Part shown: positions 18,714 to 47,724 of the stretch, in pieces
Layout of the letters: the number at the start of each line of letters is the position of its first letter
Position numbering within the stretch: the stretch's first letter is position 1
Origin: Hyphomicrobiales bacterium
GTDB taxonomy: Bacteria; Pseudomonadota; Alphaproteobacteria; Rhizobiales; JAJFHB01
NCBI GenBank assembly: GCA_021775755.1
Contig: JAJFHE010000039.1
Location: 124,001 to 188,000, forward strand
Length of the DNA stretch: 64,000 nucleotides
Direction: 5' to 3'
Notes under the pieces: model-generated
The model's input: only the letters and a program-made list of their open reading frames with translations
The model's database searches: none
Told to the model about the DNA's origin: nothing
Made by a program: the position numbers and the translations under genes

Positions 18714-18790
18714 GGGCCCGTAGCTCAACTGGTTAGAGCCGGCCGCTCATAACGGTCTGGTTGCAGGTTCGAGTCCTGCCGGGCCCACCA
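18714..18790 (+). tRNA. tRNA with CAU anticodon, probably tRNA-Ile2 (lysidine type)
   Basis: A full cloverleaf can be drawn. The acceptor GGGCCCG pairs with CGGGCCC, the D-stem is GCTC/GAGC, the anticodon arm is GGCCG-CTCATAA-CGGTC with anticodon CAT, and the T-arm is GCAGG-TTCGAGT-CCTGC; the CCA is encoded. CAU tRNAs are initiator Met, elongator Met or Ile2. C4-G69 and C5-G68 in the acceptor and the A37-A38 loop favour the Ile2 type modified by TilS; the first base pair is G-C, unlike initiators. Elongator Met remains possible. An IS6 nest starts 18 bp downstream. Confidence 0.9.
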
Positions 18791-25431: not shown

Positions 25432-25467
25432 CAGCAGATCGTAGGACATTTGGAACGGGAGGCATCG

Positions 25468-26325
25468 ATGCTACCACGATTTGAACTATCCCAACCACAA
25501 ACCCTGCCCGAGGCTTTGAAAGCTCTGGCAGGCGGCGTTGGACAGCCTTTGGCGGGTGGCACAAATCTGTTTCCCGACCTGCGCGGCGGACGGGAAAAAG
25601 GCGACACGTTCATCAGCCTGTCTCAGGTTGGTGAGCTGCGCTACATCGAGCACACGGATAACCGGGTCACGCTTGGTTCGGGGGCAACCATTTCTGATAT
25701 CCTTCGTGATCCCCAAATGAAGATCGCGGCTCCCGCGCTGGTTGCCGCCTCGGATATCTTCGCCGGCGCCATGGTCCGGAATGCGGCAACCATCGGCGGC
25801 AATGTCTGTTGCGGATCACCTTCCGCTGATTCGGTGCCACCGCTTCTGACGCTGGGTGCCGACGTTACGTTGGCCAGCGCATCGGGGGAAAGAACGCTTC
25901 CTCTTGATGAGTTTTATCTCGACTACAAGAAGACCGTCATGAAACCGGATGAGTTGCTGGCGTCCATATCTTGGACACCGCCAACGCCGGGCAGCGCACA
26001 TCTTTTTTACAAACTTTCCCGCAGAAAAGGAGACGCCATAACGATTACGGGCATCTCTGTTCTGGTTGAGGCAGAAGGTGGCAAATGCAAGACAGTGCGT
26101 ATTGCTCTGGGATCCGTTGCACCGACAATCTTCCGTGCACACGAGGCCGAAGGCATGCTTGCCGGCCGGGTCTTAACATCCGAGCTGATTGAAGAGGCGG
26201 CACAAAGTGCTGCCGGCCAATGCAAACCCATCAGTGATAATCGCGCATCGGCTGAATACCGGCTGTTGACGGCGCATTCGCTCACCCGCCGCTTGCTGAG
26301 ACAAGCCTGGAAACAGGCTTCCTAA
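25468..26325 (+). CDS. Molybdenum hydroxylase FAD subunit (CoxM/XdhB-like)
   Basis: ATG 25468 with GGGAGG 6 nt upstream gives 285 residues. The protein shows the FAD-binding domain of molybdopterin dehydrogenases: LAGGTNLFPDLRGG near residue 30 and MVRNAATIGGNVCCGSPSADSVPPLL near 100. It carries electrons from the [2Fe-2S] subunit to FAD and on to an acceptor. It is followed by the iron-sulfur and molybdenum subunits in the order M-S-L known from CO-dehydrogenase-like and nicotinate-type hydroxylases. Confidence 0.93.
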   Translation: MLPRFELSQPQTLPEALKALAGGVGQPLAGGTNLFPDLRGGREKGDTFISLSQVGELRYIEHTDNRVTLGSGATISDILRDPQMKIAAPALVAASDIFAGAMVRNAATIGGNVCCGSPSADSVPPLLTLGADVTLASASGERTLPLDEFYLDYKKTVMKPDELLASISWTPPTPGSAHLFYKLSRRKGDAITITGISVLVEAEGGKCKTVRIALGSVAPTIFRAHEAEGMLAGRVLTSELIEEAAQSAAGQCKPISDNRASAEYRLLTAHSLTRRLLRQAWKQAS

Positions 26326-26346
26326 CACCATCGAAGGAGACGCCAC

Positions 26347-26835
26347 ATGTCATCGGAAAAAGCCGTGACCCTTCGGGTAAATGGCAACGAGGTAAACATC
26401 ATCACCCCGGCGCACCGCACATTGCTGGAAGCGCTGCGCCATGAAGGGTTTGTTGAAATCAAAAGCGGTTGCGAAAAAGGCGACTGTGGAGCCTGCGCTG
26501 TCCTGCTTGACGGTGTGCCTGTCGATAGCTGCATAACGCTGGCATGGCATGCCGAGGGGCGTGACGTCACCACCATCAAGGGATTGGGAAATTCTGATTC
26601 TCCCGATCCTCTGCAAAAGGCGTTTATCGAAACGGGTGGCGCTCAGTGTGGCTATTGCACGCCGGGCATGATCATTGCGGCAAAAGCGCTGTTGAATGAG
26701 AACCCAGAACCTTCACTTGACGACATCAAGAAAGCGTTGAGCGGTAACCTGTGCCGGTGCACAGGCTACACAAAAATCTTTGAAGCCGTACAAATCGCAG
26801 CAGAAGACCTCCGCAAAGAGGGAGAAGCGGCATGA
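26347..26835 (+). CDS. Molybdenum hydroxylase [2Fe-2S] subunit (CoxS-like)
   Basis: This 162-residue protein has a good AAGGAG ribosome site. It binds two [2Fe-2S] clusters: a plant-ferredoxin type (SGCEKGDCGACAVLLDG, fourth Cys in VDSCITLAW) and an alpha-helical type (GGAQCGYCTPGMI and NLCRCTGYTKI). All eight cysteines are present. It overlaps the large-subunit gene by ATGA. Confidence 0.95.
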   Translation: MSSEKAVTLRVNGNEVNIITPAHRTLLEALRHEGFVEIKSGCEKGDCGACAVLLDGVPVDSCITLAWHAEGRDVTTIKGLGNSDSPDPLQKAFIETGGAQCGYCTPGMIIAAKALLNENPEPSLDDIKKALSGNLCRCTGYTKIFEAVQIAAEDLRKEGEAA

Positions 26836-29168
26836 ACCAGGTCGATACTTCGCCCAACGCTATTCCCAATGTGAACTTGCGGCAGGTTGGCAAAAACAAA
26901 CCACGTAATGATTCCCCCACCAAGGTTTACGGCAAGGCGATCTATGCCGGAGACCTCATCATGGATGATATGCTTTTCGCCAAGGTTCTTCACAGCGATC
27001 GCGCCTGTGCCGATATCAAAAGCATTGATGTATCTGTGGCCAAGACACTGCCGGGCGTTCACAGCGTTCTGACAGCAGATGACCTGCCGGCAACCAATGC
27101 GGTCATGACCGATATGCCGGGGCAGGTCGGTGGCGGTACGAAAAACACCAAACAGCCTATTCTGGCAAAGGAACGCGTTCGTTTTTACGGCGAGCCGATC
27201 GCCCTTGTAGCAGCAGAATCCTATGAACTTGCACAACGGGCGCTGGATTTGATTGTCGTCGATTATGAGGACACGGAAGGTGTCTATGACGCCTTTGACG
27301 CGCAAAAACCCGATGCGCCCATTGTATACGGCAATGATAATATCGTTGCCGCCTACAAGGTTCGAAAAGGCGACATTGAGAAAGGTTTTCAGGAAGCCGA
27401 TTTTGTTCTCGAGAACACCTACTCATCGCAATATCAGGAGCAGGCCTTCCTGGAGCCGGAGGCAGCCGTTGCCTGGGTTGATGAGCATGACATTTTGAAC
27501 ATCCGCTCGAGCACTCAAGTTGTAGAACATTTCCGAGCTGTGGCGGATGCGCTTGGCATGCCTCACAACAAGGTCCACCTACAGGCACCATATGTCGGTG
27601 GCGGATTTGGTGGCAAAGAAGTCATGACCATCGAGGTGTGGCTGGCATTGCTCGCCATGGATGCCCAGCGTCCGGTCAAGTTGAAACAGACGCGTGAAAA
27701 CTCCTTTATTTCTCATGGTCCGCGCCATCCCTTTACAATCACTCACAAAACCGGCGTTACTAAGGATGGCAAGATAACGGCGGCGAAAATTACCCTGACG
27801 TCCGATGCAGGCGCTTATGCCAAGCTGAGCCCCTATATCCTGCTTTATGCGACGGTTGGTGCAACCGGGCCGTACAGGGTCGATAATCTGTGGATTGACT
27901 CCACCTCTGCGGCGACCAACAACCTGCCGACCTGCGCCTATCGCGGGTTTGGCACAATGCAGGCCACCACAGCCTGTGAGGCCCAGATGGAAGAGCTTTC
28001 CAAGCTGATAGGCTTGGACTCTCTGGAATTTCGCCGCAAGAACTTCATTCAAACGGGTGATCCGAATGCTACCGGCCAGATCATTCGTAGCGCGGTGTGG
28101 TCAGACCAATGCGCGACGAAAGCCCGGGAGGCTCTCGGTGATAAACCGAAGAGCACGGAGCACACTGTCTACGGCCACGGTCTTGCCTGTTATCAACAGA
28201 GCTATGGGCGTATCCGCTGGATGAAAGATACCTCTGAATCGTGGGTTGGACTTGAAATGGACGGCACGCTCATTGTCCGATGTGCTGTTACCGATATCGG
28301 TGCGGGTCAGATGTCCGCACTGGCACAAATTGCCGGGGAGGTGCTTGGTGTCCCGATGGAAGAGATCACCGTTTACTTCGGTGATGGTCACGTCAATCCG
28401 CTGGCCGGGACTTCAACAGCTAGCCGCGCCCTCTACATGACCGGTAAAGCGACCGAACTGGCGGCCAAAAATGTTCGAAATAACCTGTTCGAATGCATGG
28501 CGGAATACTTCGATGTTAGGCCGGAGGAACTGGATCTGGGTGATTCAAAGGTTTTCGTTCAGGACAATCCCGAACGCTGCATGTCCGTCAAGGACATGGC
28601 CAAGCACTGTGCTGCTCAGGGTGTTCATCGTCACAGCCTTGAAATTTACAGAGCTCCGCCGAGCGAGGGCCTTGATCCTGAGACCGGACAGGGAGAAGTG
28701 TTCCCGGATTTCACCTACGGCGCCCATGCTGCCACGGTTGCTGTTGATACGGATACCGGCGAAGTCACCGTCATCAAGAGTGTCGGCGCTCACGACGTGG
28801 GGCAATCGATCAACAGGCAAGCCGTAGAAGGGCAGATCGAAGGCAGTGCTCTCATGGGTCAGGGATTTGCATTGAGCGAAGAACTGATTCTTGAAAAGGG
28901 TGTGCTGAAAAACGGTTCTTTCAGCGAGTATCTGATCCCAACCTCAGAGGATGTGCCGGAGATTGAATCCATAATCCTTGAATCCCGAAGTGGCCTCGGC
29001 CCATTCGGGTCGAAGGGAATTGGCGAACCCGTCTTCTCACCGGTCGCGGCTTCCATCGTCAATGCCGTGGCTGATGCTATAGGAACCCGCATACATCATC
29101 TGCCGCTGACGCCGGAAAAAGTCCTGACCGCTATCAATGAAGAGAAGACGAAGGAAGCCGCTGAGTAA
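26832..29168 (+). CDS. Molybdenum hydroxylase large (molybdopterin) subunit (CoxL/XdhC-type fold)
   Basis: This 778-residue protein holds the molybdenum cofactor. The N-terminal a/b hammerhead includes VYGKAIYAGDLIM, with QEQAFLEPEAAVAW near residue 200 carrying an active-site Glu. YVGGGFGGKE is near 255 and CAYRGFGTMQ near 370, with the Arg that aligns to the substrate-binding Arg of xanthine dehydrogenase. The catalytic Glu lies in GPFGSKGIGEP at about 731. It hydroxylates a carbon next to nitrogen in heterocycles, or oxidises aldehydes. The AYRCSFR loop of true CO dehydrogenase is absent, so it is not a CODH. No XdhC-type maturation gene accompanies it. Confidence 0.93.
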   Translation: MNQVDTSPNAIPNVNLRQVGKNKPRNDSPTKVYGKAIYAGDLIMDDMLFAKVLHSDRACADIKSIDVSVAKTLPGVHSVLTADDLPATNAVMTDMPGQVGGGTKNTKQPILAKERVRFYGEPIALVAAESYELAQRALDLIVVDYEDTEGVYDAFDAQKPDAPIVYGNDNIVAAYKVRKGDIEKGFQEADFVLENTYSSQYQEQAFLEPEAAVAWVDEHDILNIRSSTQVVEHFRAVADALGMPHNKVHLQAPYVGGGFGGKEVMTIEVWLALLAMDAQRPVKLKQTRENSFISHGPRHPFTITHKTGVTKDGKITAAKITLTSDAGAYAKLSPYILLYATVGATGPYRVDNLWIDSTSAATNNLPTCAYRGFGTMQATTACEAQMEELSKLIGLDSLEFRRKNFIQTGDPNATGQIIRSAVWSDQCATKAREALGDKPKSTEHTVYGHGLACYQQSYGRIRWMKDTSESWVGLEMDGTLIVRCAVTDIGAGQMSALAQIAGEVLGVPMEEITVYFGDGHVNPLAGTSTASRALYMTGKATELAAKNVRNNLFECMAEYFDVRPEELDLGDSKVFVQDNPERCMSVKDMAKHCAAQGVHRHSLEIYRAPPSEGLDPETGQGEVFPDFTYGAHAATVAVDTDTGEVTVIKSVGAHDVGQSINRQAVEGQIEGSALMGQGFALSEELILEKGVLKNGSFSEYLIPTSEDVPEIESIILESRSGLGPFGSKGIGEPVFSPVAASIVNAVADAIGTRIHHLPLTPEKVLTAINEEKTKEAAE

Positions 29169-29230
29169 GCGGACATCCGAACCGGGTGTTACGCGAAGAA
29201 TTCGGCATCCCTGATCAGGGCGGCTAAATC
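29169..29230. other. Intergenic start of a 918-bp gene-poor interval
   Basis: The stretch from the coxL stop (29168) to the next gene (30087) holds no convincing gene. In order it contains 60 bp of plain spacer, an IS66 relic (29231-29316), a 201-bp inverted-repeat element (29348-29548), and about 540 bp likely to include the promoter of the ABC transporter. It is a junction between two catabolic blocks patched together by insertion sequences. Confidence 0.6.
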
Positions 29231-29316
29231 GTAAGCGTCCATTTCTGACACGCAGCTCAGTTATCGACGTGTGGGGGCTGCCAATTCCAGGGCAACAGAT
29301 CGTCAATACGGCATTG
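29231..29316 (-). pseudogene. IS66-family remnant (TnpC C-terminus plus terminal repeat)
   Basis: The left edge GTAAGCGTCCATTTCTGAC (29231 on) is the characteristic GTAAGCG end of IS66 elements. On the reverse strand just inside it, codons at 29260-29310 read RIDDLLPWNWQPPHVDN followed by a stop, the well-known C-terminus of IS66 TnpC transposases. Upstream the frame is broken within a few codons. Only this end of the element survives. Confidence 0.75.
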
Positions 29317-29347
29317 TCAGGCACTGTCAGAGCCATTCGATCGGCGA

Positions 29348-29548
29348 TGTCATCTATGGACACCCCTCTGATTGCAAGTGCTTTTTAACGTGATACGCGA
29401 GGTGGGTTTGCAGTCATCTATCCGGCCTCTCATTGCAGCACAATGTTGACTGCGGGCCTTGATGGAATCCGAGGATCAACCAAACCCGAGGCGTTGTCCG
29501 AGCTTTGAGCTAGTTCCTCTGCAATCAGAGGGGTGTCCATAGATGACA
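29348..29548. repeat. 201-bp element with perfect 29-bp terminal inverted repeats
   Basis: The arms 29348-29376 and 29520-29548 are perfect reverse complements over 29 bp, beginning TGTCATCTATGGACACCCC. The 143-bp interior has no gene; at about 29413-29440 it carries a degenerate third copy of the arm (GTCATCTAT...CTCATTGCA). A further copy of the outer 19 bp with one change lies alone at 47706-47724. This is the structure of a non-autonomous insertion element (MITE-like) or two ends of a deleted IS. I do not recognise the parent family. Confidence 0.75.
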
Positions 29549-30086
29549 AAGCCTCTAGCGACCACGCTACCTAACGTGTCCATGCCAGATCAACAAATTC
29601 GACTTGCATTATAGCAATTCCAAGGTTACCACTATTCCAACAAAAACCACAAAACAGAGCTCGCACACTTATTCTGGATATAGCGGTTATGCAGGTTTCA
29701 GACGAATTTTCGGATGTGGTGCGCTTGGTCGAGGCGCATTCTACAAACGAAGTTGAGCTCTCAGAAACCCAAAAACACCACAAAAGTGACAAGCATGTGG
29801 CTCTCCGGTGGACCGGTTGGGCGGTACTCACTCATCCGTTCAACAGCGTCGGCAACCCCGCTTCAGCGATGTCTCCGGGGCTTTGCGGCAATGGTCTGTC
29901 TGTTGGATATCAGAATGTTGGAACACGATACTCCAACGCAATTGGTTTTTCATTTAGCCGGGAATTTGGGGGGGCCAGGTGTGCTGTAACGGGCGCCGAT
30001 CCTCCGTCCCTTCAGATCAGTGAATTTGAGCAAGAAGGATTGGAAAGTCCCACACAAAGTCAAACAGAGAGGAAGAGGAAGAGAAA
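29549..30086. other. 538-bp non-coding leader of the block B operon
   Basis: No open frame here has convincing protein-like sequence. The region is AT-richer than its surroundings and ends with the purine-rich ribosome site GAGAGGAAGAGGAAGAG just before ATG 30087. The operon promoter is probably inside it, but I could not single out a sure -35/-10 pair. Confidence 0.4.
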
Positions 30087-42268: not shown

Positions 42269-43070
42269 GGCTCTGTCAGGTTAACCAGGTATCGGCAGCA
42301 GCCGAAATGCGCTAGCGATTATCAATGTCGAAAATCTCTTATGCGCGCCATCGCTTTCCACCCGTCATCATCCAGAATGCGGTTTGGCTCTCCAGTCGCT
42401 TTTCGCTAAGTTATCGCGACGTAGAAGATTTGCTCGCTGTACGCGGCCTCGACATTTCATATGAAACGATCCGTCCTTGGGTCATCAAGTTCGGACAGCT
42501 CTACGCTCGCAGGCTCCGAGACAATCGACCACGACCTGCCGGCCGTTGGCATCTCGATGAAATGTACGTTTCGATCGGCGGAAGGTGGATGTATCTGTGG
42601 CGCGCGGTCGACAGCGAAGGCGAAATTCTCGATGTTCTGGTTCAAACGAAACGAGACAAGCGCGCCGCGTTGAAGCTCATGCGCAAATTGTTGAAGATGC
42701 AGGGCTACGTTCCCGACGCGATCGTTACAGACAAGCTGAGATCATACGGCGCTGCGTTACGGGAGCTTGGCCTCTCAACTCGCCACGTGACTGGGGGAAG
42801 GTCGAACAACCGGGCTGAGAATTCGCATCAACCGGTGCGACGACGAGAGCGGGTGAGCAAGGGCTTCAAATCTCCGGGAACCGCTCAACGTATTCTTTCC
42901 ATCCATGCCGCCGTGTACAACCACTTCAACGTCCAGCGCCACCTGATAACCCGTCGAACGCTTCGCCAATTCTGTGCTGCCGCCATGGATGAATGGCACG
43001 CAATTACGGCGGCCTGAATTCTGAGTGAGAAAGCTTTTTGCGCCGACATAGCCGTTAACTTGACACTTCC
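42269..43070 (+). mobile_element. IS6-family insertion sequence (copy B)
   Basis: An element of about 802 bp is bounded by imperfect inverted ends, GGCTCTGTCAGGTTAAC on the left and, inverted, GGAAGTGTCAAGTTAAC on the right (13 of 17 positions match). One intact transposase lies inside. The flanking 8-mers, atgaggca and cccagcgc, do not match. It differs clearly from copy A in terminal repeats and protein, so the two belong to different IS6 subgroups. Confidence 0.82.
42325..43017 (+). CDS. IS6-family transposase (copy B)
   Basis: This 230-residue transposase starts MSKISYARHRFPPVIIQNAV. The IS6 DDE catalytic core is intact: Asp in GRWHLDEMYVSIGG, Asp in AIVTDKLRSYGAAL, and Glu in NNRAENSHQPVRRRERV. 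The C-terminus LRQFCAAAMDEWHAITAA is mirrored by the relic at 19622-19734. It appears full length. Confidence 0.94.
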   Translation: MSKISYARHRFPPVIIQNAVWLSSRFSLSYRDVEDLLAVRGLDISYETIRPWVIKFGQLYARRLRDNRPRPAGRWHLDEMYVSIGGRWMYLWRAVDSEGEILDVLVQTKRDKRAALKLMRKLLKMQGYVPDAIVTDKLRSYGAALRELGLSTRHVTGGRSNNRAENSHQPVRRRERVSKGFKSPGTAQRILSIHAAVYNHFNVQRHLITRRTLRQFCAAAMDEWHAITAA

Positions 43071-47705: not shown

Positions 47706-47724
47706 GGGGCGTCCATAGATGACA
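47706..47724. repeat. Solo copy of the 29348-29548 element end
   Basis: The sequence GGGGCGTCCATAGATGACA is the reverse complement of the outer 19 bases of the 29-bp terminal repeat at 29348, with one substitution. It lies alone in the 212-bp spacer between the convergent acyl-CoA dehydrogenase and permease genes; no partner end is nearby. It suggests a past insertion and deletion of the same element. Confidence 0.6.

What the first reader, a model, noticed from the sequence alone, without database searches (positions are those of the whole stretch)
29348..29548. Unknown small element with perfect 29-bp inverted ends and a solo end 18 kb away
The arms are perfectly complementary, an internal degenerate third arm is present, and one 19-bp end copy sits alone at 47706-47724. 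The perfect arms indicate recent activity or selection for the hairpin. No transposase is inside, so it would be mobilised in trans.
Basis: seen in the sequence. Interest (0 to 1): 0.5.

Follow-up and report, generated by a model that had tools for sequence, protein, structure and literature searches.

The report
Fused leftover ends of RNA-guided transposon
The 201-base palindrome is most likely a dead relic made of two outward-facing copies of the RNA-coding end of a bacterial jumping gene that chooses its insertion sites with a guide RNA; it is a known kind of element in ruins, not a new mobile one.

Summary
The 29-bp perfect arms and the solo end at 47706-47724 are real; the 14-base end occurs 5 times in the 5.47-Mb genome, all within 44 kb of one contig. 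The unit is not a MITE. Its left 133 bp is the right end (RE) of an IS1111-group (IS110-family) insertion sequence, the stretch downstream of the transposase that encodes the bridge RNA/seekRNA. In relatives it lies 3' of an IS110 transposase (59 loci: 25 full, 14 truncated, 12 none, 8 at contig edges). The 'third arm' (29413-29421) is the DNA copy of an RNA guide; guide/end matches exceed all of 5000 permuted pairings. The right arm is a second, inverted, internally deleted RE, joined to the first at GGATCAACC. Both outer ends carry the target flank TGACAnnGCC. No left end and no close intact transposase was found in this genome, so mobilisation in trans is unlikely. New member of a known kind, as a relic. 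One oddity: among truncated relatives, 12 of 26 break before reaching the transposase, against about 3.6 expected if breaks fell evenly (zone limits set after seeing the data).

The parts
29343..29352 (-). Target flank of the left RE, GGCGATGTCA (reads TGACATCGCC in RNA sense)
   Evidence: TGACA in 13 of 15 and GCC at positions 8-10 in 11 of 15 copies listed; copies from one genome are not independent
29353..29480 (-). Left RE of an IS1111-group IS (RE6 to RE133, RE1 being window 29348); RNA sense is the minus strand
   Evidence: Gapless alignment over RE1-133: 116 of 133 to L096, 120 of 133 to L111, which has a full transposase; R1 hit 140.1 bits (the window's left end is one of the 17 model sequences)
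29356..29366 (-). Subterminal inverted repeat ATGGACACCCC of the left RE
   Evidence: Sequence; counterpart in left and right ends of full relatives
29413..29421 (-). Guide 2 of the bridge RNA/seekRNA (the 'degenerate third arm')
   Evidence: Covaries with the end in relatives; matches exceed 5000 of 5000 permutations
29473..29481 (.). GGATCAACC, shared by both halves: point of fusion
   Evidence: the two places correspond to two complementary stretches of one RE
29473..29519 (+). Inner piece of the second, inverted RE (RE189 to RE143), RNA sense plus; 29507-29519 holds the left half of guide 1 (GTTCCTC)
   Evidence: 42 of 47 identical to L096 RE143-189; the model finds it as a + strand hit of 16.5 bits with a 109-position internal deletion
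29520..29543 (+). Outer piece of the second RE (RE29 to RE6), with subterminal repeat GGGGTGTCCAT at 29530-29540
29544..29553 (+). Target flank of the second RE, TGACAAAGCC
47706..47719 (+). Solo end: last 14 bp of an RE (GGGGCGTCCATAGA)
47720..47724 (+). Target flank TGACA of the solo end (GCC not kept further out)

Best explanation
The unit is an immobile relic of two copies of an IS1111-group (IS110-family) insertion sequence lying with their right ends outward; only right ends (REs) survive. In the intact parent a DEDD transposase works with an RNA transcribed from the stretch between the transposase gene and the RE. One guide of that RNA matches the left target flank plus the start of the left end, the other matches the last 3 bp of the right end plus the right target flank. 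Here the left copy kept RE1-133 with guide 2; the right copy kept RE1-29 and RE143-189. They were probably joined by a deletion at GGATCAACC, which stands in direct orientation in copies so arranged because it belongs to two complementary stretches of one RE; a second deletion with about 2 bp of microhomology shortened the right copy. Without left end, transposase or a complete RNA gene the unit should not transpose. Shown: identity as REs, guide/end covariation in relatives, target-flank signature, lack of a detected left end or close intact transposase. Inferred: two separate insertions, deletion by microhomology, immobility.
For: The left 133 bp is 87-90% identical, without gaps, to REs, of which L111 has a full transposase 3 prime-to-5 prime in the expected place. 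In 59 loci (best per genome, top 30, one shared): 25 full transposase, 14 truncated, 12 none, 8 too near a contig edge; transposase end to RE1 is 240-349 nt where present. Transposase: Pfam PF02371 and PF01548, NCBIfam NF033542 'IS110 family RNA-guided transposase'. Guides: 114 of 144 matches against a permuted mean of 96.7 (largest 109), and 160 of 192 against 139.5 (largest 153), 0 of 5000 each. Second RE: 42 of 47 to L096 RE143-189 and a separate + strand model hit. Both outer flanks are TGACAnnGCC and unrelated beyond.
Against: No strain with the two intact copies or an empty site was seen, so the history is inferred. A single RE turned back on itself by template switching, then reinserted, is not excluded. 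RNA expression was not tested. The consensus RNA structure is thin: 17 pairs, only 2 with changes on both sides. The 24 elements in the permutation test include near relatives, so the test overstates independence. Not all copies keep the flank (L098, L099 lack TGACA; L098, L015, L016 and the 47724 solo end lack GCC).
Confidence: 0.85

Rival explanations
1. A non-autonomous mini-element (MITE-like) with two usable ends, mobilised in trans by an IS110-family transposase.
For: Short, no transposase, perfect inverted arms, target-like flanks at both ends.
Against: One copy in its genome. No match longer than the left RE part in the other 384 of 385 class genomes searched. Each of the 3 GTDB records with the exact 19-mer shows one end in the 8-kb piece fetched. 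Both ends are right ends; no left-end-like hit on C33 with up to 3 mismatches (3 hits elsewhere in the genome). No close intact transposase.
Confidence: 0.05
2. One RE duplicated on itself by replication template switching at the RNA stem (quasi-palindrome formation), with no second insertion.
For: The join lies at two complementary stretches of one RE; such places favour template switching (general knowledge).
Against: The arms end exactly at the target flank TGTCA/TGACA; a fold-back would be expected to continue into the reverse complement of the left flank, which it does not.
Confidence: 0.08
3. A chance palindrome or a host hairpin (terminator).
For: It lies between two genes read in the same direction and folds strongly.
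Against: Relatives in many genomes beside IS110 transposases; excess of the 14-mer.
Confidence: 0.01

Closest known systems
IS1111 group of the IS110 family, with seekRNA/bridge RNA (ISEc11, ISPa11, ISKpn4 in PMC11187229; PMC11208160)
   Same: Subterminal inverted repeats, longer non-coding region downstream of the transposase, RNA guides that match target and ends, specific target flank (in the relatives); the window keeps RE pieces of it
   Different: The window unit has two right ends, no left end, no transposase and an incomplete RNA gene; it works like nothing now, being a relic
MITEs (non-autonomous IS derivatives)
   Same: Short, no transposase, inverted ends
   Different: Not repeated as a unit; both ends are the same end of the parent

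Membership tests
IS1111 group (parent family, tested on relatives) | DEDD transposase with PF01548 and PF02371 | tested here: met
   L012 transposase; homologues at 39 of 59 loci
IS1111 group (parent family, tested on relatives) | Subterminal inverted repeat at both ends | tested here: met
   A 9-mer from the RE repeat was found with up to 2 mismatches within 161 nt upstream of the transposase start in 24 of 24 full elements; about 0.2 per element expected by chance (hand calculation)
IS1111 group (parent family, tested on relatives) | Longer non-coding region downstream of the transposase gene | tested here: met
   240-349 nt from transposase match end to RE1; criterion read in PMC11187229
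IS1111 group (parent family, tested on relatives) | RNA from that region with segments matching both sides of the target | tested here: inconclusive
   Sequence matches strongly exceed permutations; the RNA itself cannot be tested here
IS1111 group (parent family, tested on relatives) | 7-bp left and 3-bp right extension beyond the repeat (the 7 bp read, the 3 bp recalled) | tested here: inconclusive
   Assumed by the script, and the flanks then agree with the guides; not an independent test
IS1111 group (the window unit itself as an intact member) | Left end, right end and transposase | tested here: not met
   Two right ends only
MITE | Several copies of the same unit with both parental ends | tested here: not met
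MITE | Movement by a parent transposase in trans | not testable with these tools
   No assay; no close intact transposase found in this genome

The most novel reading that the evidence does not exclude
Transposase-free REs with one sharp end at the target junction and one ragged end before the transposase (the window, the second copy in its genome, five in a Hyphomicrobiales MAG, others) are not random wrecks: they would be products of one-ended, RNA-guided insertion, or orphan bridge-RNA genes kept where the transposase is gone, with the RNA gene's own DNA copy of the target serving at times as a break point.
Probability: 0.07. Interest if true: 0.6.

Novelty: new member of a known kind. Interest (0 to 1): 0.27.

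Why it matters
It shows that a palindrome with a puzzling third arm can be read as the fossil of an RNA-guided transposon: the third arm is the guide. The guide/end covariation offers a way to read the targets of a widespread alphaproteobacterial IS1111 subgroup from sequence alone, and the excess of copies truncated before the transposase can be tested as a possible mark of one-ended insertion.

Tried and rejected
MITE, chance palindrome, host hairpin and single-RE fold-back were considered (see rivals). IS21 was considered because a Phaeobacter plasmid hit lies near istA and dropped: the end points away from istA, toward an IS110 transposase. Rfam gave no match at E up to 1 for window 29000-29900 or L111 3300-4000. 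The L111 RE found no phage record; an exact 19-mer pattern found no viral contig. A tRNA-Met-bordered island was tested as a source of the low-GC stretch: no repeat of the last 14 bases of the tRNA elsewhere in the window and no integrase domain in the one neighbouring ORF checked; it stays a lead. The RNAalifold structure is too thin to claim a full RNA fold. The guide-1 copy as a break point: the right copy's inner deletion and the ends of L097, L098 and L075 lie near it, but variable guides blur the alignment ends, so I do not rest on it.

Literature seen: PMC11187229 (abstract and outline; Results parts 1 and 2 of 4); PMC11208160 (passages); PMC12859917 (passages); the rest only as search listings. 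None of the titles and abstracts listed there (20 of 30, 4 of 4, 20 of 83, 18 of 19 papers) is about transposase-less bridge-RNA relics; that is no proof of absence.

Full report
Observation. The arms, their perfection and the solo end are as described. The 14-base end occurs five times in the 5.47-Mb genome, all on contig C33 between 153348 and 197144: the two arms, the solo end in the window, a second solo end (193611) and a longer copy (197131). A search with the 221-bp stretch found one full copy, one 133-bp match at 88% (C33:197125-197257) and three matches of the arms to one another. Four places within 44 kb of a 5.47-Mb genome are hardly scattered by chance (hand estimate, about 4e-6 for three more within 44 kb of the first).

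Identity. Similar DNA in 5 plasmid records and in genomes covers mainly the left ~130 bp. In several of these places the stretch lies just 3' of an IS110-family transposase. The L012 transposase carries Transposase_20 and DEDD_Tnp_IS110 and matches 'IS110 family RNA-guided transposase'. [quoted passage not shown] PMC11208160 passages). The window stretch has such a repeat, ATGGACACCCC/GGGGTGTCCAT.

Spread. A covariance model from 17 ends (A1 and R1; the window's left end and the C33:197131 copy are among the 17) hits 95 of 397 genomes sampled from the order and 59 of 385 from the class; the samples overlap. Loci were returned only for the best 30 of each call, one shared: 59 loci from 59 genomes. 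Of these, 25 have transposase homology reaching its start (profile position 14 or lower), 14 a truncated transposase, 12 none with at least 1140 nt of contig upstream, and 8 lie too near a contig edge. About a dozen of these loci are the same places as model sequences.

The third arm. Terminal and internal copies covary: L025 has CATGTAT in both; L020 and L031 share other changes. Pairs with imperfect agreement also occur (L023, L018, L019, L032). In 24 full elements I compared the last 6 bases of the left target flank with the first 45 nt of the RNA (114 of 144 matches; permuted mean 96.7, largest 109), and the last 3 IS bases plus 5 flank bases with RNA positions 81-125 (160 of 192; permuted mean 139.5, largest 153). 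None of 5000 permutations reached either value. Some of the 24 are near relatives, so the permutation overstates independence.

Anatomy of the unit. The left half aligns without gaps over RE1-133 to L096 (116 of 133) and L111 (120 of 133). Read inward from the right end, the sequence is RE1-29 and then RE143-189 of an L096-like end (42 of 47); the model also finds this as a + strand hit of 16.5 bits with a 109-position deletion. The halves share GGATCAACC at 29473-29481. Within one RE the two places of this motif are complementary to each other; in copies with right ends outward they become direct repeats, so a deletion between them explains the join. Outside each end stands TGACAnnGCC. Of 15 copies listed, 13 have TGACA and 11 have GCC three bases on; exceptions are L098 and L099 for the first, and L098, L015, L016 and the 47724 solo end for the second. 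Beyond this the two flanks are unrelated. Elements of other subgroups (L018, L019, L028, L030, L032) have other flanks, as expected if they have other targets.

Mobility. The genome search found only one broken IS110 gene, on contig C47: 36% identity over about 290 residues with 2 stops, and 53% over the last 95. A left-end pattern with up to 3 mismatches gave 3 hits in this genome, each with 3 mismatches and none on C33. With two right ends and no left end the unit should be inert; this is inference.

An oddity. Among the 59 loci, 26 copies are truncated from the left-end side, and 12 of these show no transposase at all, their homology to full REs ending 119-251 nt from RE1. If breaks fell evenly over about 1170 detectable bases, about 3.6 of 26 would lie in this 160-base zone (binomial P about 6e-5). 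The limits of the zone were set after seeing the data, so the P value is generous. One Hyphomicrobiales MAG (G407, whose contig C12 has the length of JAJFHA010000020.1) has 6 model matches; the 5 that I fetched lack a transposase and end about 138-241 nt from RE1, and the genome shows only a 32-residue transposase fragment. Against a special cause: some copies are plainly decayed (L099); fragments of either end of the transposase occur elsewhere; variable guides blur the break points; left-end-only copies were not sought with equal sensitivity. Breakage at hairpin-rich DNA is the plain explanation.

Literature. The listings show no paper whose title or abstract is about transposase-less IS1111 RNA ends; the library lacks most subscription journals.

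Verdict. A relic of a known, RNA-guided IS group: well supported as to identity, ordinary as to kind, with one statistical oddity that deserves a survey.

Noticed in passing
window 19000-48000: GC drops to about 0.55 from 20 to 44 kb (0.573 at 44-48 kb), against about 0.60 on either side; a tRNA-Met gene lies at 18714-18790 and the solo RE at 47706-47724 near the borders. Perhaps an acquired segment.
   Followed up: partly
window 42325-43017: ORF with a DDE_Tnp_IS240 domain, another transposase in the low-GC stretch.
   Followed up: no
window 25450-29168 and L014 1340-4992: The unit follows a FAD-binding / 2Fe-2S / molybdopterin-binding gene trio. In L014 an RE relic lies one gene beyond a trio of similar lengths that looks alike by eye (no family search made there).
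   Followed up: no
L021 and L022 (G000:C47:8773-9794): A broken IS110-family transposase of another subgroup in the same genome.
   Followed up: no
L067 1475-1515 (G082:C114): An RE whose outer flank is itself the last bases of another RE (CGTCCATAGATGACAATGCC in RNA sense): a nested or duplicated end.
   Followed up: no
L006 5611-5626 (G000:C33:193611): A second solo RE of about 16 bp, with target flank TGACACTGCC.
   Followed up: partly
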